This document shows, piece by piece, positions 18,304 to 34,687 of a DNA stretch of 64,000 nt. The notes beneath the pieces are model-generated. The model saw only the letters and a list, made by a program, of their open reading frames with translations, had not been told where the DNA came from and searched no databases. The translations under genes and the position numbers were made by a program. The stretch spans positions 124,001-188,000 of the forward strand of contig NZ_JACBXD010000003.1 of NCBI RefSeq assembly GCF_013870525.1, written 5' to 3'. The DNA comes from Amycolatopsis pittospori. Its GTDB lineage: Bacteria > Actinomycetota > Actinomycetes > Mycobacteriales > Pseudonocardiaceae. Position 1 is the first letter of the stretch; each line of letters opens with the position of its first letter.

Positions 18304-21300
18304 TCAGGCGATACCGGCGGAGAACACGTGCATCGCGGCGTTGGAGGGAAGCGTCACCGCGACGACCTCCTTCCCCGCGGCCAGCGGGACGGAGTTCGCG
18401 AACACCCGGTACGGCGTGGTCGGATACGCCGCACCGGTGCGGGTGTTCTTCCCCAGCACGGTCGCCACCGTGGCCGCGCCGTACTGGGCGGGATCGGCAC
18501 AGCACCAGTTGGGGAAGCCGAGTTCGGCCTGGCTCGTGGTGCCGTCGGCGTAGCGGACGACGACGGTGCCCTTCGCCGTTCCGGTACCGGTCCCGGCCAG
18601 CACCAGCTTGGCTCCGGTACCGCGTACGGCCACCGTCTGGCCCGACGCGAGGGCGTTGTCCTTCGCGCCGGTGCCGGCGTTCGGCCAGGTCAGCTGGGCA
18701 CCGAGCGCGGTGAAGGACGCGCCCGGCTTCAGCCCGGCCTCGGCCAGGCCCTCGGCCCGGAAGCTGCTGCCGCCGCCGTCGAGGTCACCCGCCGCGACAT
18801 GGGCCGCGTCGGTGACGCCGACGTTGCCGTAGGCGGCGGCCAGTGAAGCGTGCGGAACGGTGACCGTCACCGAGTCCGTGACCCGGTTCTCCCCGAGCCT
18901 CGCCCGATACGTCGCCGTAGCGGTGAGCTGGTAGTCGTCCGGCTTGATGCCCGCGTCGGGCGTGACCTTCACCGGGACCCGCACGGTCTTTCCCGGCATC
19001 ACCAACCGGGGCCCGGCGGGCACCTCGACACGGAAGCCGTTGGCGGGCAAGGAGAACGTGACGTCCCGCACCGGCAGCGGTGTGCCGTTGGTGAAGCTCA
19101 GCGTGCCCGTCGCGGTCTGGCCGGGACCGGCGACCGCCGGCACGGACAGGGCGACCGCCCCGTTGCGGTCCTCGGGGAAGATCCCGCCGACCGCGCTGGT
19201 GCCGAACAGCCGGACGTCCTGGCGGTCGGCGGCGCCGACCTTGCCGGTCTTGACCCGCACCACACCACCGGTGGCCGAGTCGTACCACCAGCCGGACGGC
19301 GCCGCGTCCAGTTCGGCCTTGCTGCCGTACTGCCGCAGGATCGACGTCCCCGCCAGGACGGTCGCGGGCTTGCTTCCAGTGTGGACGGTCAGCTGATAGT
19401 TCCGCGACGCGGGCTTCCCGGCGTACGAACCCGTGCTGGCGCCGATTCCGACGGTCACCGTGCCCAGACCGGACGTCGGCGCGTCGACGGTGAACGTCTG
19501 CTTCGCCTGGTCGCCGTTCTTGTAGGCGCGAGTGACGCCGTCGTCCTCGGTGAGCGTGAACGAGCCCTTGCCCTGCGGGTAGACGTCGAGATCGAGCACA
19601 CCCTTGTCCCGGGTCTGCCAAGACTTCGTGCCCTCCGCCCACATCGGGACGACGGCCCCGGCGCGGACGAACAGCGGCAAGGTGTCGAGCGGAGCGTCAT
19701 AACCGTCCACAGTGGTCGGTCCGGTGTAGGTCTTGCCGCTCCAGTAGTCGACCCAGGTCCCCTTCGGCAGGTAGATGCCGTTGCGGACGTTGGAGTTCTC
19801 GTACACCGGCGCGACCAGGAAGTCCTTGCCGGACAGGAACTCGTACTTCGCCTTCTCGCCCCACACGTTCGGGTCGTCGGGGTATTCGAGCGCGAGCGGG
19901 CGGACCTGGCCGACACCGGTCTTGTGCGCCTCCACCGAATGGCTGTACGTGTAGGGCAGCAGCCGTTCCTTGAGCAGCAGGTACTTGCGGTTGATCGAGG
20001 TGAACGGTTCGCCGTGGCGCCACGGCTGCTTGTCCGACGCGGCCCAGCCGTCCATCGTCATCGCGGTCGGCAGGAACGACTTCCACTGCAGGTCGCGGGC
20101 GTAGGTCTGCGGGCTGCCGCCGAAGATGCCGTCGATGTCGCCGGTGTTGTACGCGATACCCGACGTCGTGGTGCCGGCGTACGTCGGGATCTGCCACTTG
20201 ATGTAGTCGTAGGAACCGGCCTGGTCGCCGCTCCACAGCACGCCGCACCGCTGCGCGCCCGCCCAGCTGACCGGCGTCCAGACGAACCCGCGCGCGTCGC
20301 TGTTGTCCTCGATGCCCTTGTGCGCCGTGTCGCAGGCGTCCAGCGCGAACTGGTAGCCCGGGCCGACCCACGCGACGTCGAGTTTGCGGACCCGCACGCC
20401 CGCCTTGACCTCTTCGGCCTGGTTCGGGACGCCGTTCTCGGTCCACAGCCCGAGTTGCATGTCGTTCTTGCGGAGGCCTTCGCCCGTCTGCTGGAGGTTT
20501 TCGTACCCGCAGCCGTAGCCGTCGTTGACCAGCATCCAGCCGTTGGGCATCCCGTGCTCGGTGTACCCCTCGGCGACCTTCACCGCGTCCAGCGTGTGCC
20601 GTTCGCCGCGGTTGGCGTTGTGCAGGTAGCAGTCGGCGTCACCGGTTTCGAGCCCGTAAAGCGGCGGCAGGAAAGGTTTTCCGACCAGATCGGTGTAGCC
20701 GGTGATGATGTCCTTGAGTCCGTCGCCGACCACGTACGTGGCGTCGAAACGTCGTTCGTCGTGGGTGGTGCGCACCGGTTCGGCGAAAGCGTAGGTGCCT
20801 TGCGCGAAGGTGTTGCGCAGCACGCCGTATCCGGCCGTGGAAGCGTAGAACGGCTGCGAGTTCGGGGCCCCGCCGTCGTCCCAGTTGTAGTCCGCGAAGA
20901 TCCGGATCGTCTGGTCGCGATGGCTGAACCGGCCGTTCTGCTCGCCCCCGCCGACGAACTGTTCGGTCGCCGTCCGCGCCAGGGTCTGCGTGGTCTGCTT
21001 GTCGGTCCAGGACAGCGGCGCCGACTCCTCCCAGAGCCGCTTGCGATCCGCGCCGTCGTAGAGCCCGAGGCGCATCGGGTGCTTGTACGCCCGCAGCGTC
21101 GCCTTGCCGGTGGAAATGGCCCAGTAGTCCCCCTTGTCGGCCTTCTTCGGGGTGACCGGGTCCGTGGTCTTCGGCAGCACGATCTTGCTGCCGGCGGGGT
21201 CGGTGAACGTCCCGTCCGGCGCCAGCCAGACCCGGACCGCGCCTTCGGACGGGAAGCTGACGCGCACCGCGGCGCTTCCCGAATTCAGCTTGACCGTGGG

Positions 21301-21438
21301 GCCTTCACTGGAGATACCGGTCAGATCGCCCAGTTTGCCGGACGGCGCCTCGGCGGGAGCGGCGTGGGCCGCGACCGGGGCGAGCCCGAGGAGGGTCACT
21401 GCGGCCAAACAACGTAGGGATTGCGCAACTCTGCTCAT
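18304..21438 (-). CDS. Secreted GH31 family glycoside hydrolase, possible exo-alpha-N-acetylgalactosaminidase
   Basis: This 1044-aa enzyme starts with a Sec signal peptide (cleavage near AHA-APA). An N-terminal beta-sandwich precedes the TIM barrel (about 255-590). D353 in RKLDVAWVGPG, at the end of a barrel strand, is the probable nucleophile; D405 in LWSGDQAGSYD is the likely acid/base. A GH31 proximal beta domain follows (LVAPVYENSN, FVRAGAVVPMW), then DUF5110-like and NEW3-like sandwiches (about 590-850) and a C-terminal beta domain. The LDVAW nucleophile motif differs from that of ordinary alpha-glucosidases. With a GH101 enzyme in the same island I infer the GH31 subgroup that removes terminal alpha-GalNAc, but alpha-glucosidase or alpha-galactosidase activity is not excluded. 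Its promoter region has repeats shared with other genes of the island. Confidence 0.85.
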   Translation of the reverse strand: MSRVAQSLRCLAAVTLLGLAPVAAHAAPAEAPSGKLGDLTGISSEGPTVKLNSGSAAVRVSFPSEGAVRVWLAPDGTFTDPAGSKIVLPKTTDPVTPKKADKGDYWAISTGKATLRAYKHPMRLGLYDGADRKRLWEESAPLSWTDKQTTQTLARTATEQFVGGGEQNGRFSHRDQTIRIFADYNWDDGGAPNSQPFYASTAGYGVLRNTFAQGTYAFAEPVRTTHDERRFDATYVVGDGLKDIITGYTDLVGKPFLPPLYGLETGDADCYLHNANRGERHTLDAVKVAEGYTEHGMPNGWMLVNDGYGCGYENLQQTGEGLRKNDMQLGLWTENGVPNQAEEVKAGVRVRKLDVAWVGPGYQFALDACDTAHKGIEDNSDARGFVWTPVSWAGAQRCGVLWSGDQAGSYDYIKWQIPTYAGTTTSGIAYNTGDIDGIFGGSPQTYARDLQWKSFLPTAMTMDGWAASDKQPWRHGEPFTSINRKYLLLKERLLPYTYSHSVEAHKTGVGQVRPLALEYPDDPNVWGEKAKYEFLSGKDFLVAPVYENSNVRNGIYLPKGTWVDYWSGKTYTGPTTVDGYDAPLDTLPLFVRAGAVVPMWAEGTKSWQTRDKGVLDLDVYPQGKGSFTLTEDDGVTRAYKNGDQAKQTFTVDAPTSGLGTVTVGIGASTGSYAGKPASRNYQLTVHTGSKPATVLAGTSILRQYGSKAELDAAPSGWWYDSATGGVVRVKTGKVGAADRQDVRLFGTSAVGGIFPEDRNGAVALSVPAVAGPGQTATGTLSFTNGTPLPVRDVTFSLPANGFRVEVPAGPRLVMPGKTVRVPVKVTPDAGIKPDDYQLTATATYRARLGENRVTDSVTVTVPHASLAAAYGNVGVTDAAHVAAGDLDGGGSSFRAEGLAEAGLKPGASFTALGAQLTWPNAGTGAKDNALASGQTVAVRGTGAKLVLAGTGTGTAKGTVVVRYADGTTSQAELGFPNWCCADPAQYGAATVATVLGKNTRTGAAYPTTPYRVFANSVPLAAGKEVVAVTLPSNAAMHVFSAGIA

Positions 21439-21448
21439 TCAAGACACC

Positions 21449-21669: not shown

Positions 21670-22455
21670 TCAGACGGCCTGGACCTCGACCCCGGCGGCT
21701 TCGAAAGCGCGCAGTGCCTTCGGATCGGCGTTGGAATCGGTGACCAGGGCGTGCACCTGTGTCGTCGCGCAGATCCGCGCGAACGCGCGGCGGCCCAGCT
21801 TCGAACCGTCGGCGACCGCGACGACCCGCTCGGCGCGCTCGACCATCAGCCGGTTGATGCTCGCTTCGCCTTCGTGGTGGGCGAAGGCGCCCGCCTCGGC
21901 GTCGAACGCGTCGACGCCGAGGAACAGCAGGTCGATCGTCAGTTCGCTGAGCACCCGCGTGGCCAGCGGGCCACTCAGTTCGAACGACTGCGGGCGCGCG
22001 ACACCGCCGGTGACGACGATCTTCACATGCGGCCGCACCGCCAGTTCGTGCGCGATGTTCAGCGCGTTGGTGACCACGGTGAGCCCCGGCGAATCACCGC
22101 GTCCCGCCAGGTCGGAACGCGTGGCCAGCGACCGCGCGACCCCGGCGGTCGTCGTCCCGCCGTTGAGCCCGACCACCATGCCCTGCGCCACCAGCGAAGC
22201 CGCCGCGACGCTTATGCGCTGTTTCTCCGGCACGTGCCGCGCGGTCTTGTACCGCAACGGCAGGTCGTAGGCGAGATCGTTCGCCACCGCGCCACCCCGG
22301 GTGCGGGTCAGCAGCTGCTGTTCCGCGAGGTGGTCGAGGTCGCGCCGGATGGTGGCCGCGGAGACGTTCAGCTCCTCGGCGACGTCCTCGACGTCGATCT
22401 TCTCCCGCTGTCCCAACAGGTCCAGCAGGGTGCTCAGCCGTTCGTGCCGGGCCAT
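21670..22455 (-). CDS. DeoR/GlpR-family regulator of the GalNAc island
   Basis: This 261-aa sugar-phosphate-responsive regulator has an N-terminal DeoR HTH (RHERLSTLLDLLGQREKIDVEDVAEELNVSAATIRRDL in two helices) and a C-terminal effector domain with the family markers GLNGGTTT and VTNALNIA, plus a LFLGVDAFD segment. Starts at ATG 22455, with AGGAG 8 nt upstream; a GTG at 22464 overlaps that site and is less likely. It sits between the GH31 and GH101 genes and is the only regulator in the island, so it probably controls it, with a phosphorylated sugar such as galactosamine-6-P or tagatose-6-P as inducer. It resembles AgaR in role. Confidence 0.88.
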   Translation of the reverse strand: MARHERLSTLLDLLGQREKIDVEDVAEELNVSAATIRRDLDHLAEQQLLTRTRGGAVANDLAYDLPLRYKTARHVPEKQRISVAAASLVAQGMVVGLNGGTTTAGVARSLATRSDLAGRGDSPGLTVVTNALNIAHELAVRPHVKIVVTGGVARPQSFELSGPLATRVLSELTIDLLFLGVDAFDAEAGAFAHHEGEASINRLMVERAERVVAVADGSKLGRRAFARICATTQVHALVTDSNADPKALRAFEAAGVEVQAV

Positions 22456-22564
22456 CCGCGCCACTCCTAGCTCGCTGCGGCCTATCGCGCATCACGTTGC
22501 GCTGTTGGCCACTGTTTCGAGCAGTATGCTGCATCGCGGCTGTCCGTCGCGAGCGGCACGCCGT

Positions 22565-25555
22565 TCACCTCGCCCCGAGGTCTTCGACGATCAGGTCGTC
22601 GAGGATCAGGTCGCGGTCCTGCTCTTGGGTCGCCGGGGTCAGTTTCGAGATCCCGATCCAGTCGGTGCCTTCGATGGTCGCGGTGAACGTCGTCGGCGTA
22701 TGCGCCTCCGCGAACGTCGAACTCGTTCCCGCGCCGGTCACGAAGGCGTAGTCACCGGTCTTGGAGGCTTCGTAGGTGAACGAAATCCGGTACCGGTGCC
22801 CCGGGTCGAACCGCAGCGTCTGCGGGATCGTCCGGTAGATCAGTCCCTGGTTCTCCTCGTGGGATTTCAGGGATTCGTTGCCCGACAACACGTCGTCGAC
22901 GAGTTTGCCGTTCCAGCCCCGCTGAGTGTACGGCGCGTTCTTCTGCGCGATATGCGTGCGGGGGTCTTCGGCCGCGCCGGCGTTGCCGCCGTAGACGAAC
23001 GGACCCCACCCGGTGTCGACGTTCTCGAAGTCCTCGGCGAAGTAGTGCCCGCCGGGCTTGTTCCCGGTGCGCACGACGCGGACGTCGTCGAACGCCACCG
23101 GCGTGCTCCCGGCGTCGGCGCGCACGGCGAGGTTCGCAGTCGTCTGTCCCGGCGGGACGGTGAACGTGACCTTCATCCGCTGGGTGTTCGTCCCGGCGTA
23201 CTCACTGGCACGGACGTAGTTCTTCACCGTCGAACTGTCCGTCCACTCGGTCACCTTCGCCCCGCCCGGCGGCGTCACGTCGAGGCTCGCCTTACGCTTG
23301 CCGGTGACTTCGACATTGACCGACGCCGTGTACGTCCCCGCCGACAGGCCGGTGACCTGCTGCGACGCCGAGCCGGCATCGCCTGGCGCGAACTCCAACC
23401 GCCGCTGGCCCGCCGCGTTCTGAGGCACCGACGCGCTGCCGGTCACCTCCCAGCCGTCGAGTTTCCCGGAGTAGAACGACGGATCCTTCAATCCCGTGCC
23501 GTCACCCCAGTTCTGCTCGACGTTCGGACCGGGATCGGCCGGATAGACGACGTACGGCGTGTTCGCGTCGGCCGCGATGGTCACCTTGCGGTCGTTCACC
23601 TTCAGGTCGGAGACGAACTGCCTGCCGGTGTCGGTGAGGCGGTACAACTTCGCCTTCGGACGTGGCCCCCACGACGACGGCAAGGTCCAAGTAGTGCTGC
23701 CGCCCGTCGCGTTCCAGTGGTACAGCTTGCTTTCCTTCTGCTGGTCCCACGGCAGGAGATAGCTGCCACCGTCGAGCACGAGATGGCCGTCCTTGGTGAT
23801 CTGCCGGGCGCCCGACGCCTTCGAGACGCTGACGCCGTCGCTGAGCCGGATCTCCTCCGGTGCCCACTTCTGGATCTGGAAACCCTGCAGGTACTTCGTC
23901 GGGACGTCGACGGCGAAGGTGCGCTTCAGGAAACCGGGGTATCCGGAACCGCCGACCCAGCCTTCGTAGGCGGCCAGTTCGCCGCCGCCGAGCAGCGGAT
24001 CGCCCGCGATCCAGTCGTCCTTCTGGTGGTTACGGATGAACCGGACGATGGTGCTGTTGATGCCCTTGTAGTTGCTGCCGCCGTAGTTGACGTCGTTCGC
24101 CCAGTGACTCCAGGTGTTCTGGCGTTCGAACTTGTCCGGGAACTCGGTGGCGATCGCGTAGCCGAGGTCGTTCATCTCGCGGGCGAACTTCTCCGAAACC
24201 TGGCCGTCGCCGTACCAGACGTCGACGTAGAGGAAGTCCAGGTTCGGCGCCTTCCGCTTGAGTTCTTCCAAGCGGGACAAGCGCTTTCCGCTCTGTCCGT
24301 CCAGGCGGTAGTCGATGTGGTAGCTCTGGTCGAGCCAGTCCCAGCCGAGGTCCTTCCGCACATCGGTCGCGATCGCGGGGTCGAAGGCGGGCGAGACCGG
24401 GTACTGCTCGGTGTCCTGGATGTGCACGCCGACGTCGGCGTTGTAGCGGTGCGCCCCGTCGATCAGCTTGTTCAGGTCACCGACACCGCCCTGCCGTTTG
24501 CCGATGCCGCCGTAGTCGGGATGCGCCGAGTCGTGGCCCTCCGAGCCGTAGCCCTTGAGCAGCACGAACTGGCCGAGCCCGTCGGTGTTGAGCGCGACGC
24601 GTTTGGTCTCGTCGAGCGTCTGCAGGAACGGGTGCTCGGCGTTGGAGGCGAAGTTGAACGGGATGCGCATGACCGGCCGTCGCGCGACCTGCTCCCAGCC
24701 CTTCGGGTCGACCATGATGTCGCGGAAGGCGATCGCGCCGTCCTGCCAGTCGACGACACGGTCCGCGTTACGGTCACCGGCGATCACGATCTTGGCGTAC
24801 GGCAAGGGATCCGTGTCAGCGGGTTTCGAGCCGTCGGCGCGGTACGTCCAGTCCCCGCTCCACAGCCCGGCGCGTTTGAAGGTCCCCTTGTCGGTGACCT
24901 GGGCGCGGATACGCCCGTTGTCCTTGGCCGTGGGACCGGACGGCTTGTCGTAGGTGGAGTTCGTTTCGATCGCGGCGGCGAGACCACCGGTGTTGACGAT
25001 GGCGTACATCGCGCTGCGCGCGGCGGTGTCGACGGGCGTCGCCGCGGTGATCGGGGTGAACGTGTCCCCCGTTCCGGTCGTCGCGTTGTGCATCTTCGCC
25101 GTGGAGAGCGCCGAGCCGGGCTGATCACTGCGCACGGAGACCAGGTTGTGGTCCGGAATGGACAGTGACTTCACCGGATTCGCGGTGGTGTCGGAGATCT
25201 TGGTGACGGCGAACTCGGTCGTGCGATCGCGCAGCCGGATAGTGGCGTCGATCCGGACCCCGCCGTAGGACGGGAAGGCCAGCCGGTAGTCGACGCGGTC
25301 CCAGGACCGGCGGCTGGTGACCTCCGGCGTGTACGCCGTGCCGTTGAGCACGACCTGGCCGAGCTGATCGGTGTTGCCGTCGAGACGTGCGCCGCTGCGG
25401 TTGTCGGTGTAGCCGACGACGCGCGGAAAGGCCGAATCGGCCGTCACCGTCAACGCGCCGGAGCGCAGGGTGACGAGTCTTTCCCGAGCGTCCGCCGGAG
25501 CGGGCGCGGCTAAGAGACCAGCGAGAAGCACGGGGACCAGGACGAGCCGGACCAT
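22565..25555 (-). CDS. Secreted GH101 endo-alpha-N-acetylgalactosaminidase
   Basis: This 996-aa enzyme has a signal peptide (cut near ADA-RERL) and an N-terminal galactose-mutarotase-like sandwich (about 25-280). The GH101 barrel follows (about 290-600). D445 in FLYVDVWYGDGQ is the predicted nucleophile and E471 in AIATEFPDKFE the acid/base, in the order known for GH101 enzymes such as EngBF. SHWANDVNYGG and DPLLGGGELAAYEGW are further GH101-like segments. Two C-terminal beta-sandwich CBM-like domains follow (about 680-830, 840-996). GH101 removes intact Gal-beta-1,3-GalNAc from Ser/Thr of mucin-type glycoproteins. I chose ATG 25555, since GGAG precedes it; a GTG six nt earlier is possible. 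The gene follows a nested palindrome. Confidence 0.9.
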   Translation of the reverse strand: MVRLVLVPVLLAGLLAAPAPADARERLVTLRSGALTVTADSAFPRVVGYTDNRSGARLDGNTDQLGQVVLNGTAYTPEVTSRRSWDRVDYRLAFPSYGGVRIDATIRLRDRTTEFAVTKISDTTANPVKSLSIPDHNLVSVRSDQPGSALSTAKMHNATTGTGDTFTPITAATPVDTAARSAMYAIVNTGGLAAAIETNSTYDKPSGPTAKDNGRIRAQVTDKGTFKRAGLWSGDWTYRADGSKPADTDPLPYAKIVIAGDRNADRVVDWQDGAIAFRDIMVDPKGWEQVARRPVMRIPFNFASNAEHPFLQTLDETKRVALNTDGLGQFVLLKGYGSEGHDSAHPDYGGIGKRQGGVGDLNKLIDGAHRYNADVGVHIQDTEQYPVSPAFDPAIATDVRKDLGWDWLDQSYHIDYRLDGQSGKRLSRLEELKRKAPNLDFLYVDVWYGDGQVSEKFAREMNDLGYAIATEFPDKFERQNTWSHWANDVNYGGSNYKGINSTIVRFIRNHQKDDWIAGDPLLGGGELAAYEGWVGGSGYPGFLKRTFAVDVPTKYLQGFQIQKWAPEEIRLSDGVSVSKASGARQITKDGHLVLDGGSYLLPWDQQKESKLYHWNATGGSTTWTLPSSWGPRPKAKLYRLTDTGRQFVSDLKVNDRKVTIAADANTPYVVYPADPGPNVEQNWGDGTGLKDPSFYSGKLDGWEVTGSASVPQNAAGQRRLEFAPGDAGSASQQVTGLSAGTYTASVNVEVTGKRKASLDVTPPGGAKVTEWTDSSTVKNYVRASEYAGTNTQRMKVTFTVPPGQTTANLAVRADAGSTPVAFDDVRVVRTGNKPGGHYFAEDFENVDTGWGPFVYGGNAGAAEDPRTHIAQKNAPYTQRGWNGKLVDDVLSGNESLKSHEENQGLIYRTIPQTLRFDPGHRYRISFTYEASKTGDYAFVTGAGTSSTFAEAHTPTTFTATIEGTDWIGISKLTPATQEQDRDLILDDLIVEDLGAR

Positions 25556-25648
25556 GAACACTCCGATCGGGAAGCGGTCGGTTACTGGGCGGTAAGGCGA
25601 AGGTGCCGTGTCTCGTGCCGGCCTCGGGCACCCGGTCCTGTGGCGGGT

Positions 25649-25701
25649 GTTGCGAAAGCCACTTTCGCAACGTTGAAGGTTGCGAAAGTGGCTTTCGCAA
25701 C
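25649..25701. repeat. 53-bp nested palindrome, copy 2
   Basis: Identical to the copy at 21589, including the GTTGAAG spacer. It begins only 6 nt beyond the stop of the DUF5107 gene (minus-strand sense) and lies upstream of the GH101 gene. This would fit termination of the long transporter operon before GH101. Confidence 0.9.
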
Positions 25702-25707
25702 TCCTCG

Positions 25708-27560
25708 CTACTTCATGCGGAAGTCGTACTGTTTCGGCAGCGGCTCAGCGGAAACGGCCGCCCAAGTGTCTGAAAGGGACGTATCCCCTTCTCGGATGTT
25801 CGGTACCTCGAAGCCCGCTTCGTACACGGCTTCGGCGGCTTCGATGTCGCCTTGGGCAAGATGGGTCCGGGCCGCCAGCAGGGCGATCCGGCCTTCCCGC
25901 GGAAGTCCGTCCAGCAATCCGGCCGCTTCCCGCGCGAGCCCGGCGGCGAGCTGCGCGGCGATCGCCTCGACGACCAGCGGACGCAAGGACGGCGTGAGGG
26001 CGACAGCGCGGCGGTAGAGCCAGGCGGCTTCGTGCCCGGCCGTGGCGACCGCGAGATTCCGCAGTGCCCAAGGGTTCTCGTCGGCGGCCACGGACTCGCG
26101 CCAGGCGCCGACGGCGTCCGAGTGCCGTCCGGCCGCCCAGTGGGCGACGCCGCGGTGATACCAGGTCAGCCAGTTCTTCGGGGCGTACTCCATAAGATCC
26201 GCCCAGTACCGGTTCACCAGCGTCGGAGGGGGCACCACGAGCGGGTCCCCCGCCGGAGGCGTTCCGTCGAGCAGTGCGAGCCAGGGCGCCTGCTCCGGCC
26301 CGAGGGAGTCGTCCGGGAACGGCGTGCCGGGAAGACACATCGGCGCCCGGCGGTTCTCCAGCGCACCCCAGCCGGATCCGGTGGCCAGGAACGATTCCGG
26401 GGTGACGTCGGCGATCTTCCGCCAAGCGTCGTGGTACTCGTCCAGCGTCTCCGCCGACGGCAGCTCAGCGGCCACCGCCTCACGAGCCGCCGCCCAGTCG
26501 TCCCCGTGCACCGAGGCGGGATCGACGGTGACCGGGCCATAGACCTCAAGCCAGTCCCAGCTCTCCCCCGGCGGCAACCGCAGATGCTCCAGCTGGGTAC
26601 GCGCGAGACCGGCCTGGATCTCCAGGTAGCCGCCGGCACCGGGCGCCAGCCATTCCTGCCAGCGGCGTCCACCGGCGGATTCGCCCCACAGGAACAGTTT
26701 CCGCCCGCGCAGCCGGGACGTCGACAGCTGGGCGAGGCCCGTGCCGTCACCGTCGACGGCCGCGACCCAAGGCCGTTCGGTCACCTCGAAGAAGTAGTCG
26801 GCCGCGGCGTCGGCCCTCGCCGGATACGTCAGCTCACCCGGGACGTCGACCAGGTCCAGCCGTCCCGAGTAGCCGTAGTGCCAGGCCTTCGTCGCGGGCG
26901 CCAGCACCCGTGTGTCGTCGTGCTGCGGCACCGCGATGTTCGACCACCAGTACACCGGGACGTCGTACGGATGCGGATTCCGCAGCCGCACCGCCACGAG
27001 CAGGTGGTCCGAGTCGGCGGGCAGCCAGAAATCGATCTGGTACGGCAGGTCGCGGGTGCGTTCCCACTCCCACAGCCGCAGGACCGGCGTGCCGTCGGGG
27101 CCTTCGACCTCGGCGGCGAACATCGGCTCGCAGGTCAGGGTGGTGTGTCCGGTGCTGCCGAGGTTCCACTCGACACCCCCGGCGAACCACGCGTCCCGCA
27201 GGGCCAGGTTCGCGGGCTGGAACACCGGGTTGCGGTAGAGCAGTTCGCGGCCGGACGGCTTGTGGAAGAGCGAGTAGAGCCGCCCGCCCAACGACGGCAG
27301 CACAGTGGCGCGGAGCTTGTCGTTCTCCAGCACCAGTGCGGGAAGCTCACGTTCGGTGCGCTCACGCGTGTAGCCGTCCTGCAACAGGCACGGCAGGCTG
27401 GTGTCCAGCCGCCCGTAGCCGATGCCCTCCGCCAGCTCCGGCGGCAGCTCGTCCACATTGGACACTTTCGCCACCGCTTCGGGTTTCTTCAGCGGCGGTA
27501 ACGGGTTCTCCGGACCCAGCTCGGCGGCGGGGAGCTTCAGCCCCTCGCGGTAGAGGCGGG

Positions 27561-27564
<4 letters not shown>
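25708..27564 (-). CDS. DUF5107 domain protein with C-terminal TPR region
   Basis: This 618-aa protein has no signal peptide, so it should be cytoplasmic. Residues about 40-330 form a beta-sandwich region of the DUF5107 type (KLRATVLPSLGGRLYSLF and YQIDFWLPADSDHLLVAVRL), resembling galactose-mutarotase-like folds. The last 170 residues are Ala-rich helical repeats of TPR type (WLTWYHRGVAHWAAGRHSDA). ATG 27564 overlaps the ATPase stop (ATGA), so it is the last gene of the sugar-transporter operon. A role in processing the imported oligosaccharide is inferred from context only; DUF5107 has no function that I can state with certainty. Confidence 0.75.
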
Positions 27565-28628
<1,064 letters not shown>

Positions 28629-28634: not shown

Positions 28635-29564
28635 CTACTTTCCGGCGCCGAGGGTCATGCCGGTGATGATCCGGCGGGCGAGCACGAGGTAGAGCACGAG
28701 CATCGGGAGGACGACGATCGCCACACCGGCGATCAGACCGCCGTACTCCGACTGGTAGCTCGCGGCTCCGTAGAAGGTGAACAACGCGCGGGACAGCGTG
28801 AAATGCGCCTGGTCCTTGAGGAACACGATCGCCAGCAGCGTCTCGTTCCACAGGCCGATGGCGTTCAGCGTCAGCGCCGTGATCATCCCGCCGCGGGTCA
28901 GCGGCAGCATGACTGAGAAGAACGTCCGCGTCGGCGACGCGCCGTCGAGTGCCGCGGCCTCCTCCAGTTCGTCCGGCAGGGACCGGAAGAAGCCGGTCAT
29001 CAGGAACACCGTGAACGGGATGGACAGGGCCACGTACAGCACGAACAGGCCGTACTCGTTGTCCATGTGGATCTTGCTCATGACCACGAACAACGGGATG
29101 ATGACGGTCTGGAACGGCACCCCCATGCCGATCGCGACGGCGTTGGTCATCGGCCCGGCACCGCGCACCCCGAGCCTGGTCAGCGCGTAGGCGCAGGGCG
29201 CCGACACGGCGACCGTCGCGACCGTCGCCAGCCCGACCAGGACCACCGTGGTCAGCACCGCGTCGCCGAAACCGGCGTTGTTCCAGGCGTAGATGAAGTT
29301 CCGGAACGGCTTGCCGACGTGGAACCACTGGTACGGCAGGGCGAACGGCTTGGTGAAGATCTCCACCGGCGTCTTGAACGACGCCGTGAGCAGCCAGTAC
29401 AGCACCAGGACGTTGCCGGCGGTGAACAGCCACACGATCGTGGAGCCGAGTATTCGCAACGGGCTCAGCCGTTTCGAACCGGGCGCCGGACGCGGTTTGC
29501 GCGGTGGCTTGCGCACCGGTTTCGCCGGTCGCCGCGCGGGCGCCTCGACGTCGGTGACGGACAT
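28635..29564 (-). CDS. Carbohydrate ABC transporter permease (MalG-type)
   Basis: This 309-aa protein has six transmembrane helices after a basic, Pro-rich N-terminus. The cytoplasmic coupling loop EEAAALDGASPTRTFFSVMLPL is the binding-protein-dependent transport permease signature (EAA motif). Start ATG 29564 follows a GGGAG site 10 nt after the preceding permease stop; an ATG at 29594 would overlap that gene. It forms the channel with the permease at 29575-30528. Confidence 0.9.
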   Translation of the reverse strand: MSVTDVEAPARRPAKPVRKPPRKPRPAPGSKRLSPLRILGSTIVWLFTAGNVLVLYWLLTASFKTPVEIFTKPFALPYQWFHVGKPFRNFIYAWNNAGFGDAVLTTVVLVGLATVATVAVSAPCAYALTRLGVRGAGPMTNAVAIGMGVPFQTVIIPLFVVMSKIHMDNEYGLFVLYVALSIPFTVFLMTGFFRSLPDELEEAAALDGASPTRTFFSVMLPLTRGGMITALTLNAIGLWNETLLAIVFLKDQAHFTLSRALFTFYGAASYQSEYGGLIAGVAIVVLPMLVLYLVLARRIITGMTLGAGK

Positions 29565-29574
29565 TCGGTCTCCC

Positions 29575-30528
29575 TCAGAACTGGATCGCGTCACGGCGCA
29601 TCAAACGGCGTAGCAGGACGACGAGCACGGACACCAGCACGATCATCGCCACCGCGCAGGCACAGGCGGCACCGAAGTCCGGGGTGCCGTTCGAGCCGAA
29701 GGTCCGGTCGAACACGTAGATCCCCAGCGTCCACGCCTGGTTGGGCGGGGCGTAGGTACCCGGCCCGGCCAGCACGAACACCAGCTCGAAGATCTTGAGC
29801 GCGTTGATCGTCCACAGGACACCTGCGACGCCGACGACGTCCCAGGTCATCGGCAGCGTGATGTTGCGGAACTTCTGCCACGGCGACGCGCCGCCCAGTT
29901 CGGCGTCCTCGTAGAGATACGGCGGGATCCGGTCGACCGCGGCCATCAGGATGGTGATGTAGAAGCCGGAACTGGCCCAGATCAGCGAAGCCGTCACCAC
30001 ACCGGTCACATTGGACGGAGCGAGGAACTTCGCCGCGTCCGCGCCGAGCCCTTCGAGCACGTAGTTCGCGAGGCCCTGTTTCCCCGGCTGATACTTGAAC
30101 ACGAAGCCGAGGAACATGCCGAGCGCCACCGGCGCCACGATGTTCGGGAAGAACAGGATGGCGCGGACGATCTTCCCGCCCTTCATGTCCCTCAGCACCA
30201 TGGTGAACAGGAACGCCAGCGCGAACGTGCCGATACCGCCGAGGAACACGTAGATCAGGGTGTTGCGGAAGGCGTACTGGAACGAATCGCTCGCCCACAT
30301 CTGCGTGTAGTTGGTGACGCCGTTGGGTTCCGGCGTGTCACCGGCGCCCGCCCAGCTGGTGAAGCTCAGGACCACGGTCGCGATCGTCGGCAGCACCAGG
30401 AAGGCGAGGTACAGCACCAGCGCGGGCGCGGCGAACGGCCAGAACAGCCGTTTCTTGCGGCGCAGGTGCGCGCCAGCCTTCACCACCCGCGCCGGCGCCG
30501 GTGTCGTCGAAGTCGTGACCGTGGCCAT
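29575..30528 (-). CDS. Carbohydrate ABC transporter permease (MalF-type)
   Basis: This 317-aa protein has a short basic N-terminus followed by about six transmembrane helices. The EAA-type loop is PYLYEDAELGGASPWQKFRNITLPM. Start ATG 30528 overlaps the stop of the binding-protein gene (TGATG), which fixes the start; the upstream continuation of the frame is only a shadow. Partner of the MalG-type permease. Confidence 0.9.
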   Translation of the reverse strand: MATVTTSTTPAPARVVKAGAHLRRKKRLFWPFAAPALVLYLAFLVLPTIATVVLSFTSWAGAGDTPEPNGVTNYTQMWASDSFQYAFRNTLIYVFLGGIGTFALAFLFTMVLRDMKGGKIVRAILFFPNIVAPVALGMFLGFVFKYQPGKQGLANYVLEGLGADAAKFLAPSNVTGVVTASLIWASSGFYITILMAAVDRIPPYLYEDAELGGASPWQKFRNITLPMTWDVVGVAGVLWTINALKIFELVFVLAGPGTYAPPNQAWTLGIYVFDRTFGSNGTPDFGAACACAVAMIVLVSVLVVLLRRLMRRDAIQF

Positions 30529-31919
30529 CAGCCCTGGTTCTTCCAGAACTCGGCGCCCTTGGTGGCGAGCTGGTCGATGAACTGCTCCGGGGTGAGCTGG
30601 CCCTTCAGCAGCCCGATGTCGGCCGGGTCGAAGACGTCGGTCTGCCATTTGCCGCCGGCGACACCGTCGATGCCGTCGTACTGCAGCACGTGTTCCTTCT
30701 TCGGGTCGTCCATCGCGGCCTTGACCTGCTTGAGGTCGTCCGGCACGGCGAGGTCGGCGCGCGGTACGAGGTTGTCGGCCACCGCGGGGATCCCGGAGAG
30801 CAGGTCCTTGTTGAGGAAGTAGGCGATGAACGCCTTGGCGGCTTCGGCGTGCTTGGCCTTCTTGGTCACCGAGAAGCCGATCGACATCTGCTCGACGGTG
30901 TCGTGCGTCGCGCCGGCGGGCATCGGGAACTGGAAGGAACCGTAGTTGATCTTCGTCCCGGCACCCTGCTTGTCCAGGTACTCGCGGGTCTCGCTCGGCG
31001 CCCAGCTGCCGACGTAGAGGAAGCGGGAGTCGCCGTCGGCCCAGCGCTGCTGCACCTGCGGGAACTTCGCCGCGTCCCAGCCGTCGATGAAGTACTTGGG
31101 CAGCTTCGCGGTTTCGGCGGCGGCCTTGAGGAAACCGGGCTCGGTCTTCCACGCCTGACCGGTCTTGTCGGTCGCGGCCTTGTACAGCCCGCCCGCGCCG
31201 ACGTACCGCTCGGCGAGCTGGGTGTAGAAGTACATGTTGTAGAACGGGATGTCGCCGTCGAGGCTGATCGCGGCCGTGCCGTCGGCCTTCGCCTTGTCGA
31301 ACAGCCCGATCATCTCGTCCATCGTCTTCGGCTGCTGGATGTCACCGGCGGTGTCCTTGTTGAACCACCAGGCGCTCGACTGGATCGTGTACGGGACCAT
31401 GAAGTTGTGGCCCTCGCGGTCCTTGTTCTGCGGGAAGTCGTACGAGCTGGGCGAAAGCACGTCCTTGACGGTCTTGTCGCCCTCGCCGACCTTCATCGCG
31501 AACACGTCGTCGACGCTCTGCGTGCCACCCGGCGTCATGATCGCCGCGCCGACCTTGCTGACGTCCTGGTCGAACAGGTCCGGCACGGCGTCGGTGTTCA
31601 GCGCGGGCACCAGGTTCTGGGTGTAGGCCTTGCGGCCCAGCCACTGCACGTCGACCTTGACGCCGGTCTTCTCCTGGAAGCATTTGAAGGCCTTCTGCAG
31701 GACCTTGCCCTGCGGCTCGTCGGCCGTCCACATGGACCAGTACGTGAACTCCTTGTCCGTGGCGGGTTTCACCGCCGCCTCCGGACAGGGCGCGTTGAGG
31801 AACTGGTCGACGCCGGGAAGGGCGTTCTCGCCGGTTCCCCCGGCCGTGTCCCCGCCGCCGCATCCCGCGAGCAGGAGCGACGCCCCCGCCGTCAATGCCA
31901 TCAGCTTGCCTATCCGCAT
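30528..31919 (-). CDS. Carbohydrate ABC transporter substrate-binding lipoprotein
   Basis: This 463-aa extracellular solute-binding protein has a lipoprotein signal ending LLLAGC (C20), then a Gly/Thr linker and a type II binding fold (EFTYWSMWTADEPQGKVLQ start; FMVPYTIQSSAWWFNKD hinge; QRWADGDSRFLYVGSW). It should capture an oligosaccharide or sugar for the following permeases. The neighbouring GH101 and GH31 enzymes make galacto-N-biose or GalNAc the best-guess ligand. I used ATG 31919, which begins the classical signal peptide; ATG 31949 would add ten residues. Confidence 0.9.
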   Translation of the reverse strand: MRIGKLMALTAGASLLLAGCGGGDTAGGTGENALPGVDQFLNAPCPEAAVKPATDKEFTYWSMWTADEPQGKVLQKAFKCFQEKTGVKVDVQWLGRKAYTQNLVPALNTDAVPDLFDQDVSKVGAAIMTPGGTQSVDDVFAMKVGEGDKTVKDVLSPSSYDFPQNKDREGHNFMVPYTIQSSAWWFNKDTAGDIQQPKTMDEMIGLFDKAKADGTAAISLDGDIPFYNMYFYTQLAERYVGAGGLYKAATDKTGQAWKTEPGFLKAAAETAKLPKYFIDGWDAAKFPQVQQRWADGDSRFLYVGSWAPSETREYLDKQGAGTKINYGSFQFPMPAGATHDTVEQMSIGFSVTKKAKHAEAAKAFIAYFLNKDLLSGIPAVADNLVPRADLAVPDDLKQVKAAMDDPKKEHVLQYDGIDGVAGGKWQTDVFDPADIGLLKGQLTPEQFIDQLATKGAEFWKNQG

Positions 31920-31964
31920 CCGCCACCACCTGGATCGAAGATCACACAAGTTCTGCTTGTTCTT

Positions 31965-31989
31965 GCGCAGTTTTGTGAGGTTTCACGCA
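31965..31989. promoter_or_regulatory. Shared operator/promoter block upstream of sugar-binding-protein gene
   Basis: GCGCAGTTTTGTG (31965-31977) lies 46-58 nt upstream of the binding-protein start. A block differing by one base (GTGCAGTTTTGTG) is at the same 46-58 nt distance upstream of the AgaS-like start at 34687. TTTCACGCA follows at 31981-31989 and recurs at 34771. This is probably the DeoR operator or core promoter of the island's two minus-strand operons. Confidence 0.55.
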
Positions 31990-32000: not shown

Positions 32001-32882
32001 TCAATCGCGCAAACTCTGCTCAATCGTCACCTTTTCCGGTTCAGTCTGATCAAGCTTGAGCACTCCGAGCAGACGCCGCACCTCGACGGCGACCGCCGCC
32101 CGGCCGGCACCGAGGTACTTCCGCGGGTCGACACGGTCCGGATGTGCTCGCCAGTCGTCCGCCGCGGCCGCGGTGAACACCTTGTTGAGCTGGGTGGCGA
32201 TATTGATCTTCGTCATCCCGGCGCGCACCGCCTCGGCCAGCCCGCCGTCGGGCACGCCCGACGATCCGTGCAGCACCAACGGCACCGGCACGCGGTCCCG
32301 CAGCCGGGTGATCAGCTCGAAGTCCAAGGCGGCGTCGCGCGTGAGCATGGCGTGCGAACTGCCCACCGCCACGGCCAGCGCGTCGACCCCGGTGGCCGCG
32401 ACGAACTCCGCGGCCTCGTCCGGATCCGTGCGCGCGCCGGGCGCGTGCACACCGTCCTTGCCCCCGACCTCGCCCAGTTCGGCCTCGACCCAGACACCGT
32501 GACCGTGGCAGTACTCGACGACTTCCCTGGTGGCACGCACGTTGTCGGCGTAGTCCAGTTTGGACGCGTCGAACATGACCGAACCGAAGCCGAGCGCGAC
32601 GGCCTCCCGGACCAGATCCACCGACTCCGCATGGTCGAGGTGCACGGCGACCGGGGTACTCGCGGCCCTGGCCGAGGCGAGCGCCGCGGTGCCGACCGGC
32701 GCCAGCGAACCGTGATACTTCACGGCGTTCTGGCTGAGCTGCACGATCACGGGTGCTTCCGCGGCGGCCGCGCCGTCGATGATCGCGGTGATGTGTTCGA
32801 GCTGGATCGCGTTGAACGCGCCGCAGCCGTGCCGGGCCGCCGCGGCGGCTCCGACGATCTCCCCGGTTCCCACCAGAGGCAT
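32001..32882 (-). CDS. Class II fructose/tagatose-bisphosphate aldolase
   Basis: This 293-aa class II (zinc) aldolase has GCGAFNAIQLEHITAII near the N-terminus. The zinc ligands include the VAVHLDHAES pair, Glu in WVEAELGEVGG and His in VLHGSSGVPD; KINIATQLNKVF is the phosphate-binding region. The sequence type is GatY/KbaY-like, and with an AgaS-like protein and a PfkB kinase in the same operon, cleavage of tagatose-1,6-bisphosphate to DHAP and glyceraldehyde-3-P is likely. Fructose-bisphosphate activity is possible. ATG 32882 has GGAGAA upstream. It is the last gene of a three-gene operon. Confidence 0.87.
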   Translation of the reverse strand: MPLVGTGEIVGAAAAARHGCGAFNAIQLEHITAIIDGAAAAEAPVIVQLSQNAVKYHGSLAPVGTAALASARAASTPVAVHLDHAESVDLVREAVALGFGSVMFDASKLDYADNVRATREVVEYCHGHGVWVEAELGEVGGKDGVHAPGARTDPDEAAEFVAATGVDALAVAVGSSHAMLTRDAALDFELITRLRDRVPVPLVLHGSSGVPDGGLAEAVRAGMTKINIATQLNKVFTAAAADDWRAHPDRVDPRKYLGAGRAAVAVEVRRLLGVLKLDQTEPEKVTIEQSLRD

Positions 32883-32892: not shown

Positions 32893-33798
32893 CTAGGTCG
32901 TGTCCAGTAAGCCTGGGCGGGCGCGCACGGCGACCAGCCCCTGTTCCCGGTGGTAGTGCGCGAGGTCGACGTCCCCCGCGAGCGGGCCGAGCACGGCCGC
33001 GCCGGACAGCGCGACGGCCCCGCGCAGGATGTCCGGCCAAGATTCGCCTTGGCCGAGTCCCAGCGCGAGCGCCGCGACGACGGCGTCACCCGCGCCTGTG
33101 GTGTTGCCACTGAGCAAAGTGGACGGCGCCGCGTGCCAGGTGCCGGACCCGGTGACCGCCAGCAGTCCTTCGCCGCCCAACGAGACGACGACCGCGCCGG
33201 CCCCGGCCTTGCGCAGTTCGGCCGCCGCGGCCACCGGATCGCGCAGACCGGTGACCTCACGCAGTTCTTCGGCGTTCGGTTTGACCACGGAAGGCCGTCC
33301 GGCCAGTGCGGCGAGGAGCGCTTCACCGGAAGTGTCCAGAATGGACTTCGAGCCGCCGAGGAGTTCCGCGTAGCCCCCGGCCCCCGGCGGCAGGCTGCCG
33401 GAACAGACCAGCACGTCCGGTTTTCGGGTCCGGACGGCCGCCGCAAGCGTTTGCCATTCGGTTCCCGTGAGCCGCGGCCCGGGTTCGTTCACCAAGGTGA
33501 CTGATCCGTCGTCGGCCAGAACCGTGGTGGTGCGCCGGGTTTCGCCTCCGATGGGGACGACGTCCGCGGGGATTTCCGCCGCCGCGAGGTCCGCCTCGAC
33601 GGCGGCTCCCGTCGAACCGCCCGCCGTCAGGATCGCGCGGACGTCGGCGCCGAGCGCGTGCAGCACGCGGGCGACGTTGACGCCCTTGCCGCCCGCCCGG
33701 TGCCGGACGTCCCTGGCCCGGTGCACCTCACCGGGCCGCAGACCGTCCACTGTGTACGTGACGTCGAGCGCGGTGTTCGGCGTGACGGTGACGATCAC
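32893..33798 (-). CDS. PfkB-family hexose-phosphate kinase (tagatose-6-P kinase / 1-phosphofructokinase type)
   Basis: This 301-aa ribokinase-fold enzyme of the LacC/FruK subgroup has the N-terminal TVTPNTALDVTY, the AGGKGVNVARVL motif and the C-terminal catalytic signature SGNTTGAGDAVVAAL with the base Asp in GAGD. It probably phosphorylates tagatose-6-P at C1, feeding the aldolase 10 nt downstream. 1-phosphofructokinase is the main alternative. It is 7 nt after the SIS-domain gene. Confidence 0.88.
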   Translation of the reverse strand: MIVTVTPNTALDVTYTVDGLRPGEVHRARDVRHRAGGKGVNVARVLHALGADVRAILTAGGSTGAAVEADLAAAEIPADVVPIGGETRRTTTVLADDGSVTLVNEPGPRLTGTEWQTLAAAVRTRKPDVLVCSGSLPPGAGGYAELLGGSKSILDTSGEALLAALAGRPSVVKPNAEELREVTGLRDPVAAAAELRKAGAGAVVVSLGGEGLLAVTGSGTWHAAPSTLLSGNTTGAGDAVVAALALGLGQGESWPDILRGAVALSGAAVLGPLAGDVDLAHYHREQGLVAVRARPGLLDTT

Positions 33799-33805
33799 GG
33801 CAGCC

Positions 33806-34687
33806 TCAGGTGAGCACGACGGAACGGGTGAGGCTGCGGGGGTTGTCCGGGTCGAGGCCCTTGCGGGCGGCGATCGCCCCGGCCACCCGCTGCGCGCGGA
33901 CCAGATCCGCCAGCGGGTCCAGGCCGCTCTCGACGAACAGGCCGCCCGCGCGGGCGACGTCCTCGGCCAAGCCCTCCGGCGCCTGCCCGAACATCCAGGT
34001 CACGCGGCCGGGCTCACTGATACTGATCGGGCCGTGCCGGTAGTCCCAGGCCGGGTACGACTCCGTCCACAGCAGACACGCCTCGCGAAACTTGAGCGCG
34101 GCCTCGTTCGCGATGCCGACCGACCAGCCGGTGCCGAGGAAGCTGAACTGTTCCGCGCCGAGCAGCTCGTCGGGCAGCTCTTCGGCGAGCACCCGGTCGG
34201 CCTGGTCCGCGACCGCGGTCAGGTCTTCGCCGAGGTGTGCGCGCAGCATCGCCAGCGCCGTGGTGGCGAACCGGGTCTGCACGACCGAACGTTCGTCCAC
34301 GACGGACAGATCGACGATGGTGTCCGCGGCCGCCTCGATCTCGCCGGGCACACCCGTGATCGCGATGGTCGGCGTCTTCCCGCGCAATCTCGCCAGGAGG
34401 GCGTGGACTTCGGTCGTCGTCCCTGACCTGGTCAGCGCCACGACGTGGTCGTACTCGCGGGCAGACGGAAACTCCGACGCGGCGAACGCGTCGGTCTCGC
34501 CGAGCCCGGCGGTTTCGCGAAGGACGGCGTACGCCTGGCCGATGAACCACGACGTGCCGCAGCCGACGATCGCGACCCGCGCGCCCGGCGGCGGCAGCAG
34601 ATCACCGTTCGCCGAGGCCAGCGCCGCCGCGTCCCGCCAGCAGCCGGGCTGGCTGGCGATCTCCGCAGCCATGAAGGTCCCGCTCAT
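33806..34687 (-). CDS. SIS-domain sugar isomerase/deaminase, AgaS-like
   Basis: This 293-aa protein has two SIS (phosphosugar-binding) modules: ARVAIVGCGTSWFIGQAYAVL, with LTRSGTTTEV, in the first; QFSFLGTGWSVGIANEAALKF in the second. This architecture fits AgaS (galactosamine-6-P deaminase/isomerase) or the isomerase half of GlmS. There is no glutaminase domain, and the genes after it handle the tagatose phosphate that AgaS would make. ATG 34687 has GGGGAG upstream; the frame continues to 34717 but without a better start. It is the first gene of the operon and has the shared promoter block 46 nt upstream. Confidence 0.85.
   Translation of the reverse strand: MSGTFMAAEIASQPGCWRDAAALASANGDLLPPPGARVAIVGCGTSWFIGQAYAVLRETAGLGETDAFAASEFPSAREYDHVVALTRSGTTTEVHALLARLRGKTPTIAITGVPGEIEAAADTIVDLSVVDERSVVQTRFATTALAMLRAHLGEDLTAVADQADRVLAEELPDELLGAEQFSFLGTGWSVGIANEAALKFREACLLWTESYPAWDYRHGPISISEPGRVTWMFGQAPEGLAEDVARAGGLFVESGLDPLADLVRAQRVAGAIAARKGLDPDNPRSLTRSVVLT

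What the first reader, a model, noticed from the sequence alone, without database searches (positions are those of the whole stretch)
18304..34687. A mucin-type O-glycan / N-acetylgalactosamine utilisation island in a Pseudonocardiaceae-like actinobacterium
Seen: a continuous minus-strand block with secreted GH101 and GH31 enzymes, a DeoR regulator, a CUT1 sugar transporter, a DUF5107-TPR protein, a SIS (AgaS-like) protein, a PfkB kinase and a class II aldolase. Known: GH101 releases Gal-beta-1,3-GalNAc from Ser/Thr; AgaS, tagatose-6-P kinase and tagatose-bisphosphate aldolase form the lower GalNAc/galactosamine pathway. Inferred: the bacterium cuts O-glycans outside the cell and imports and catabolises the sugar. 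Such islands are known mainly from gut bacteria; in a soil-type actinomycete the natural substrate, for example a fungal or animal glycoprotein, is open.
Basis: partly seen in the sequence, partly recalled or inferred. Interest (0 to 1): 0.82.

Follow-up and report, generated by a model that had tools for sequence, protein, structure and literature searches.

The report
Soil actinomycete GalNAc island gaining GH101
A soil-type actinomycete carries a compact gene set that appears to clip the sugar N-acetylgalactosamine off glycoproteins, import it and burn it, and one enzyme of the set, which releases whole two-sugar O-glycans, seems to have been dropped recently into an older island that works on single sugars.

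Summary
The genes are as described: secreted GH101 and GH31, DeoR, a sugar ABC transporter with its own ATPase, DUF5107-TPR, SIS, PfkB and aldolase. The GH31 is nearest to solved GH31 alpha-N-acetylgalactosaminidases (6m76, E 5e-107). The N-acetylgalactosamine (GalNAc) reading is supported: two relatives of one genus (G201, G228) hold SIS, kinase (ROK), deacetylase (NagA), PfkB and aldolase in one run, and G267 and G295 end the island with GH109, another GalNAcase family, instead of GH31. The steps missing here are elsewhere in the genome (ROK on C160, NagA on C125). Two corrections. SIS is not AgaS (27 bits, cut-off 529) but GlmD/GlmS-like. GH101 is not part of the conserved island: ten close relatives have it in the same order without GH101, as does outgroup G171 (with a ROK added); in the window a 3,146-bp segment replaces a 19-20-bp spacer between DUF5107 and DeoR. 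This GH101 groups with Kutzneria's, not with those of its own genus, which sit elsewhere in the island: at least two gains. The older system is thus a GalNAc scavenger; core-1 release looks like an add-on outside the conserved promoter boxes. DUF5107 has a mutarotase-like fold; a GalNAc mutarotase role is proposed, not shown.

The parts
33806..34687 (-). SIS-domain sugar-phosphate isomerase/deaminase (GlmD/GlmS-like; predicted galactosamine-6-phosphate deaminase-isomerase)
   Evidence: Pfam SIS 36 bits; NCBIfam GlmD 74, AgaS 27 bits vs cut-off 529; PDB 2cb0 E 1e-17 with RHG motif aligned. ATG at 34687; ORF opens with TTG at 34717
32893..33798 (-). PfkB-family hexose kinase (predicted tagatose-6-phosphate kinase)
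   Evidence: TIGR03168 266.6 bits over cut-off 216.4; LacC TIGR01231 112 bits, below its cut-off
32001..32870 (-). Class II ketose-bisphosphate aldolase (predicted tagatose-1,6-bisphosphate aldolase)
   Evidence: TIGR00167 226.7 bits over cut-off 215.6; GatY/KbaY models below cut-off
34728..34744 (-). Promoter element ACAAAACTGC-N-AAC upstream of SIS
   Evidence: One of only 2 matches in the whole genome; upstream region largely conserved in relatives
31959..31976 (-). Same promoter element upstream of the transporter operon
30528..31919 (-). Lipoprotein sugar-binding protein of a CUT1-type ABC transporter
   Evidence: SBP_bac_1; lipobox LLAGC read in translation
29575..30513 (-). ABC permease 1
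   Evidence: BPD_transp_1
28635..29594 (-). ABC permease 2
   Evidence: BPD_transp_1
27561..28628 (-). UgpC/MalK-type ABC ATPase
   Evidence: NF008653 457 bits over cut-off 432
25708..27564 (-). DUF5107-TPR protein, mutarotase-like fold domain plus TPR, no signal peptide seen
   Evidence: Pfam DUF5107; AF2 pLDDT 69.8; Foldseek galactose mutarotases among best hits
22564..25709 (.). 3,146-bp segment carrying GH101, absent from 10 close relatives
   Evidence: junctions measured against four relatives; relatives
25649..25701 (.). Paired 23-bp palindrome just inside the left junction, 6 bp after the DUF5107 stop (dispersed genomic element)
22565..25561 (-). Secreted GH101 endo-alpha-N-acetylgalactosaminidase (likely ATG at 25555)
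   Evidence: Pfam GH101 domains; SpGH101 5a55 E 3.5e-176; D447, E473 invariant in 11 GH101s
21670..22464 (-). DeoR-family regulator, nearest model AgaR
   Evidence: NF040755 AgaR 202.8 bits, cut-off 260 not reached
18304..21438 (-). Secreted GH31 alpha-N-acetylgalactosaminidase
   Evidence: PDB 6m76/6m77, 7f7r, 7f7q best, E 5e-107 to 6e-106; D354 aligns with the residue that is N in chain 7f7r
34771..34779 (-). Box TGCKYGAAA upstream of SIS (others at 31981-31989, 22515-22523 and 21449-21457 upstream of SBP, DeoR and GH31)
   Evidence: 4 in the window, all 4 in island promoters; largely conserved in 12 (SIS, SBP, DeoR) and 15 (GH31) aligned upstream regions

Best explanation
The island is a GalNAc scavenging system. 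Outside the cell a secreted GH31 alpha-N-acetylgalactosaminidase frees GalNAc from alpha-GalNAc (Tn-type) glycoproteins. The lipoprotein-dependent ABC transporter imports it. Inside, a ROK kinase encoded elsewhere (C160) makes GalNAc-6-phosphate, a NagA-type deacetylase (C125) makes galactosamine-6-phosphate, the island SIS protein deaminates/isomerises it to tagatose-6-phosphate, PfkB phosphorylates it and the aldolase splits it. DUF5107-TPR probably speeds interconversion of the alpha anomer that the retaining GH31 releases. An AgaR-like DeoR protein controls the promoters. GH101 was inserted later, in this lineage, between DUF5107 and DeoR, and adds release of Gal-beta-1,3-GalNAc from core-1 O-glycans. 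Shown here: gene content, order conservation, presence and absence of the GH101 segment, enzyme families, promoter elements. Inferred: substrates, reaction order, anomer role, regulation, and gain rather than loss of GH101 (by parsimony).
For: GH31 nearest to solved GH31 alpha-GalNAcases, nucleophile Asp aligned. G267 and G295 lack this GH31 (no match, and only E 4e-26) and end the island with GH109; B. theta GH109 and GH31 both release core GalNAc (PMC11992087, passages). SIS-ROK-NagA-PfkB-aldolase in one run in G201 and G228, next to SIS-GH35-GH101; SIS-ROK-PfkB-aldolase in G267, G171, G273 and Arthrobacter L131. Own genome: ROK 59% to the G267 island ROK, beside a DeoR paralogue 65.5% identical to the island DeoR; ROK at 70% or more in 18 of 26 same-genus genomes, 96-97% in the ten close relatives; NagA equivalog TIGR00221 met. 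Insertion: 10 of 10 close relatives and G171 lack GH101; window sister to the ten, G171 outside; GH101 tree pairs window with Kutzneria (support 100), apart from G267, G295, G254, A. anabasis.
Against: No biochemistry. The transporter ligand cannot be read from sequence (best PDB match E 7e-12). PfkB and aldolase fail the tagatose-specific models LacC and GatY/KbaY. The ROK scores best against a glucokinase model, below cut-off. Mutarotase role: the model is of moderate confidence, profile comparison of DUF5107 with GalM/YphB gave no match (probability 0.2%), and the same fold search also returns YidC and GH94 phosphorylases. In the three scanned of five g53 genomes with DUF5107 its neighbours are arginase, peptidase or other non-sugar genes. 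GH101 is mostly not near GalNAc genes: in 10 of 16 family loci and 74 of 80 named loci no SIS, PfkB, aldolase, DUF5107 or DeoR homologue was seen. As the window is sister to the ten relatives, an earlier gain with a loss is not excluded.
Confidence: 0.78

Rival explanations
1. One reading: an integral mucin-type O-glycan island whose primary job is to release and import galacto-N-biose through GH101.
For: GH101 is present, catalytic residues conserved; GH101 lies with GalNAc genes in other lineages too (Kutzneria, Catelliglobosispora, G267, G295, Arthrobacter).
Against: GH101 absent from the otherwise matching island of ten relatives and of G171; no known disaccharide-splitting family in the island; neither TGCKYGAAA nor the ACAAAACTGC element lies before GH101.
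Confidence: 0.15
2. The island serves another GalNAc or galactosamine polymer of the soil, such as fungal galactosaminogalactan, rather than animal-type O-glycans (substrate idea from recall).
For: Conservation in ten close relatives without GH101.
Against: Nearest solved enzymes are named alpha-N-acetylgalactosaminidases, and GH31 homologues of that kind act on mucin GalNAc (PMC11992087 passages); recruitment of GH101 and GH109 points to O-glycans.
Confidence: 0.2
3. A GlcNAc/glucosamine pathway: GlmD-like SIS makes fructose-6-phosphate, PfkB and aldolase are ordinary glycolytic enzymes.
For: SIS is nearest to GlmD/GlmS; PfkB and aldolase pass only general models.
Against: Dedicated kinase and aldolase would be needless; the hydrolases in the island variants read here (GH31, GH109, GH101) are of GalNAc-releasing families, apart from the GH35 of G201/G228; DeoR is nearest to AgaR.
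Confidence: 0.08
4. DUF5107-TPR is the cytosolic cleaver of Gal-beta-1,3-GalNAc, replacing GH35.
For: In 80 named GH101 loci DUF5107 (4) and GH35 (16) never coincide; G201/G228 have GH35, no DUF5107 in the stretches read; the fold search also returns GH94 phosphorylases.
Against: Chance overlap expected is only 0.8; DUF5107 persists in ten islands without GH101.
Confidence: 0.04

Closest known systems
Enterobacterial/streptococcal aga (GalNAc) pathway
   Same: Deacetylase, deaminase-isomerase, tagatose-6-phosphate kinase, aldolase, AgaR-like DeoR control
   Different: ABC import plus ROK kinase in place of a PTS; SIS protein not of the AgaS family; deacetylase and kinase outside the island
Bacteroides thetaiotaomicron BT4240-50 (PMC11992087, passages read)
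   Same: GH109/GH31 alpha-GalNAcases with a GalNAc kinase
   Different: SusD-like surface uptake; GH2 beta-1,3-galactosidase; APH-type kinase that phosphorylates O1; the words isomerase, aldolase and tagatose do not occur in its main text
Galacto-N-biose route with ABC transporter LnbABC and phosphorylase LnbP (PMC5583593 passages; bifidobacterial GH101 and family number GH112 recalled)
   Same: An ABC transporter, and GH101 acting before it
   Different: No GH112 found (controls silent); GalNAc-6-phosphate/tagatose route instead
gnb cluster with intracellular GnbG (PMC5583593 passages; that GnbG is GH35 is recalled)
   Same: G201/G228 islands pair GH35 with GH101 and the aga-like genes
   Different: The window island has no GH35
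E. coli yph operon (YphG is annotated as DUF5107)
   Same: DUF5107-TPR protein with a sugar ABC transporter
   Different: 22% identity; separate epimerase-like YphB and a dehydrogenase; no function found in the searches made

Membership tests
GH101 | GH101 catalytic and accessory domains | tested here: met
   five GH101-type Pfam domains over cut-off, 402 bits for the barrel
GH101 | catalytic Asp and Glu (D764, E796 in SpGH101, numbers recalled) | tested here: met
   D447 and E473 align with SpGH101 and are invariant in 11
GH101 | release of core-1 disaccharide | not testable with these tools
   no assay
GH31 alpha-N-acetylgalactosaminidase (EfNag31A kind, name recalled) | closest to characterised GH31 GalNAcases, not to glucosidases | tested here: met
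   6m76 E 5e-107; next other GH31 E 3e-55
GH31 alpha-N-acetylgalactosaminidase (EfNag31A kind, name recalled) | nucleophile Asp in KxDVAWVG and acid Asp in GDQ | tested here: met
   D354 and the SGDQ Asp aligned; the role of the GDQ Asp is recalled
AgaS | AgaS family model TIGR02815 | tested here: not met
   27 bits, cut-off 529; Arthrobacter homologue 27.6
aga GalNAc pathway | GalNAc-6-phosphate deacetylase | tested here: inconclusive
   NagA equivalog met but on another contig; sugar preference untested
aga GalNAc pathway | tagatose-6-phosphate kinase and bisphosphate aldolase specific models | tested here: not met
   LacC 112 of 409.55; TIGR01858 221 of 443.55; only general models met
AgaR | NF040755 cut-off | tested here: not met
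   best model, 202.8 of 260
Galacto-N-biose phosphorylase route | GH112 | tested here: inconclusive
   no match, but controls silent too
Aldose 1-epimerase (for DUF5107) | galactose mutarotase fold | tested here: met
   Foldseek 3mwx, 4bze, 3nre E 3e-10 to 2e-9, model pLDDT 69.8; YidC and GH94 also match
Aldose 1-epimerase (for DUF5107) | sequence-profile homology to GalM | tested here: not met
   probability 0.2% with a two-sequence profile

The most novel reading that the evidence does not exclude
Actinomycetes hold a GalNAc pathway assembled from non-aga parts: ABC import, a ROK GalNAc-6-kinase, a new GlmD-like family of galactosamine-6-phosphate deaminase-isomerases, and a DUF5107-TPR protein that is the first GalNAc mutarotase of its family (kin of E. 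coli YphG); GH101 is a module that has been plugged into this pathway several times independently.
Probability: 0.35. Interest if true: 0.62.

Novelty: new variant of a known kind. Interest (0 to 1): 0.47.

Why it matters
It gives a complete, testable GalNAc pathway for actinomycetes that uses neither AgaS nor, in the island, a PTS; a functional lead for DUF5107 (E. coli YphG); and a clean natural comparison (island with and without GH101 among close relatives) that lets one ask directly what a newly gained O-glycanase adds to a bacterium.

Tried and rejected
GH35 replacement by DUF5107: attractive from loci (0 of 80 with both), but the expected overlap is 0.8 and DUF5107 occurs without GH101; set low. 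The counts are lower bounds: the GC-based gene caller shows no GH101 itself in 8 of the 80 loci, all Bacteroidota, and 31 of the 80 loci are cut short by contig ends (lengths).

Sequence-profile link of DUF5107 to GalM/YphB: no match. No function for DUF5107 or YphG came from the paper searches (one paper, not opened; twelve, listing and abstract starts only).

Codon usage and GC do not mark GH101 as foreign, so the insertion rests on synteny and trees. Rfam gave nothing at gathering thresholds. The ARAGORN hit at 23927-24021 has no assigned amino acid and lies inside GH101; taken as false.

Early ORF calls missed or mis-framed genes (PfkB in G267, SIS and ROK in G201/G228); corrected by tblastn maps. 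In the GH101 tree 92 loci plus the window were used; L024, L025, L030 and L056 were left out, and two pairs are identical copies of one genome; its root is a drawing midpoint.

Plasmids: 5 of 72,556 records hold a GH101 relative, best 56%; no vector for the insertion was found.
Full report
Observation. The stretch 18304-34717 (minus strand) holds, in order of transcription, SIS, PfkB, class II aldolase, sugar-binding lipoprotein, two permeases, an ATPase, DUF5107-TPR, GH101, DeoR and GH31. All pass Pfam cut-offs. GH101 and GH31 begin with signal-peptide-like sequence and the binding protein has a lipobox; I saw none in SIS, PfkB, aldolase or DUF5107 (read by eye in translation). The window is C116:124001-188000 of an 8.42-Mb draft genome. 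The genus is probably Amycolatopsis, because the GH101 of A. anabasis groups with those of same-genus genomes G267, G295 and G254; this is inference.

Enzymes. The GH31 protein is nearest to GH31 alpha-N-acetylgalactosaminidases in the PDB (6m76/6m77, 7f7r, 7f7q; E 5e-107 to 6e-106), the next GH31 being at E 3e-55. Its D354 aligns with the Asp that is Asn in chain 7f7r. GH101 matches SpGH101 over catalytic and accessory domains at 3.5e-176; D447 and E473 are invariant in 11 aligned GH101s. SIS is nearest to GlmD/GlmS and archaeal glucosamine-6-phosphate enzymes; the AgaS model gives 27 bits against a cut-off of 529, while a published pipeline takes AgaS as the signature of the GalNAc route (PMC5583593, passages). 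PfkB and aldolase pass only general models. DeoR is nearest to AgaR, 203 of 260 bits.

Relatives. GH101 occurs in 15 of 297 genomes of the family, in 6 of 46 genera, the window genome included. In 6 of the 16 other family loci read it lies with island homologues (L019, L021, L023, L026, L032, L033); in 10 it does not. Of the 80 named loci 6 hold DUF5107 or the SIS group (L056, L060, L088, L129, L131, L133). The linked neighbourhoods are: G201 and G228, DeoR, then SIS-ROK-NagA-PfkB-aldolase, then SIS-GH35-GH101; G267, SIS-ROK-PfkB-aldolase, DeoR, transporter-DUF5107-DeoR-GH101-GH109; G295, the same set without the ROK; Kutzneria, PfkB, transporter-DUF5107-SIS-GH101; Catelliglobosispora, DeoR, binding protein-permeases-DUF5107-GH101; Arthrobacter L131, DeoR-aldolase-PfkB-ROK-SIS beside GH101. 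Together these supply every step from GalNAc to triose: kinase, deacetylase (TIGR00221 met), deaminase-isomerase, kinase, aldolase. In the window genome the kinase candidate is on C160 (59% to the G267 ROK), beside a DeoR gene 65.5% identical to the island DeoR. Of 30 genomes searched 28 have a match at E<=1e-70 (misses G223 and G273); in G201, G228 and G267 that match is the island ROK itself. At 70% identity or more it is in 18 of the 26 same-genus genomes. The deacetylase is on C125 (53%).

GH101 as an insertion. The GH31 protein is 92-94% identical in ten same-genus genomes (in G283 it is split into two overlapping frames), none of which has a GH101. All ten hold SIS-PfkB-aldolase-transporter-DUF5107-DeoR-GH31 in the same order at 85-99% protein identity, with the same two genes (CMD, MoaF) beyond SIS. 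Their DUF5107-DeoR gap is about 120 bp. In the window, similarity to them stops at 25710, in the DUF5107 stop codon, and resumes at 22563, just after the GH101 stop codon: 3,146 bp in place of 19-20 bp in the four relatives measured. Outgroup G171, with ROK inside its operon, also lacks GH101, as does G273, whose island is rearranged. On a tree of ten island genes the window is sister to the ten (support 93/80), G171 being the outgroup; a single gain is the shortest history, though an earlier gain followed by loss is not excluded. In a tree of 93 GH101s the window pairs with Kutzneria (support 100, 66% identity), in a group with Streptomyces, Paenibacillus and Bacteroidota, while G267, G295, G254 and A. 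anabasis fall across the midpoint root. In G267, G295 and A. anabasis GH101 lies after DeoR, not before it. So GH101 joined this kind of island at least twice within or near one genus.

Regulation. ACAAAACTGC-N4-6-AAC occurs twice in 8.42 Mb, upstream of the SIS and transporter operons, and recurs before the transporter operon of G267 and G295, with a variant in G201 and G228. The pattern was read off these sites, so the informative part is its absence elsewhere in the genome. TGCKYGAAA occurs four times in the window, all upstream of SIS, SBP, DeoR and GH31 (mean 1.4 expected, 8 of 100 shuffles reach four anywhere); this pattern too was read off the promoters. The boxes are largely conserved in 12 to 15 aligned upstream regions. 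Neither pattern precedes GH101.

DUF5107. It is found in 10 of 396 genomes of the phylum over cut-off, the window genome included. The model (pLDDT 69.8, five sequences) matches 5cd6, a TPR protein of no stated function, then galactose mutarotases, but also YidC and GH94 phosphorylases. E132, H140 and E315 are invariant across 15 homologues and in an alignment with E. coli YphG. It stays in islands that have only GH31, so its role should concern GalNAc itself. A mutarotase for the alpha anomer released by the retaining GH31 fits, but a profile comparison with GalM/YphB was negative, and in three genomes of genus g53 (L150, L152, L154) the scanned neighbours are arginase, peptidase or other non-sugar genes.

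Conclusion. An actinomycete GalNAc scavenging island with a secreted GH31, to which a GH101 appears to have been added in this lineage. It is a new variant of the aga kind: same logic, but other import, kinase and isomerase families. Of the literature I saw two papers as passages that bear on it (PMC11992087, PMC5583593), passages of PMC7674204, no matching passage in PMC11861894, and the rest as listings with abstract starts. The searches listed no paper on such a GalNAc pathway in soil actinomycetes (98 and 102 showed 10 of 19 and 8 of 129). From recall, an endo-GalNAcase activity of a Streptomyces strain was reported in the 1990s; one search named that strain and its author, and none of the ten papers shown, of 44, holds either term.

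Noticed in passing
window 21589-21641, 25649-25701, 36822-36874, 52282-52334: A 53-bp pair of 23-bp palindromes (GTTGCGAAAGTGGCTTTCGCAAC and its reverse complement, 7 bp apart), each within about 45 bp after a gene's stop codon; 116 + 118 exact copies of the 23-mer in the genome. In several relatives the DeoR-GH31 gap holds other palindrome-like sequences at that place (read by eye). Possibly a terminator-like or REP-like element family.
   Followed up: partly
L051:8974-10654 (own genome, C160): DeoR paralogue and ROK kinase converge and overlap by 11 bp; the pair looks like a satellite of the GalNAc island.
   Followed up: partly
L149:150-2908: DUF5107 next to and convergent with an aldolase 66% identical to the island aldolase, in a distant actinobacterium; no GH101 in the 12 kb read.
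   Followed up: no
L222:1817-12057 (E. coli K-12 yph operon): YphG is annotated as DUF5107; it lies with a sugar ABC transporter, an epimerase-like YphB and a dehydrogenase, all marked putative.
   Followed up: partly
L084, L091, L094 and 13 other Streptomyces GH101 loci: GH35 beta-galactosidase beside or near GH101 in 16 of 80 named loci, a second architecture for core-1 use.
   Followed up: partly
L187:12985-16112 (G283): The GH31 gene of this relative reads in two overlapping frames: a frameshift or a sequencing error.
   Followed up: no
plasmid record NZ_CP151545.1: A 33-kb record named Pseudomonas aeruginosa holds a GH101-like reading frame, 39% identical; unusual, possibly a mis-assigned contig. 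Listing only, not fetched.
   Followed up: no
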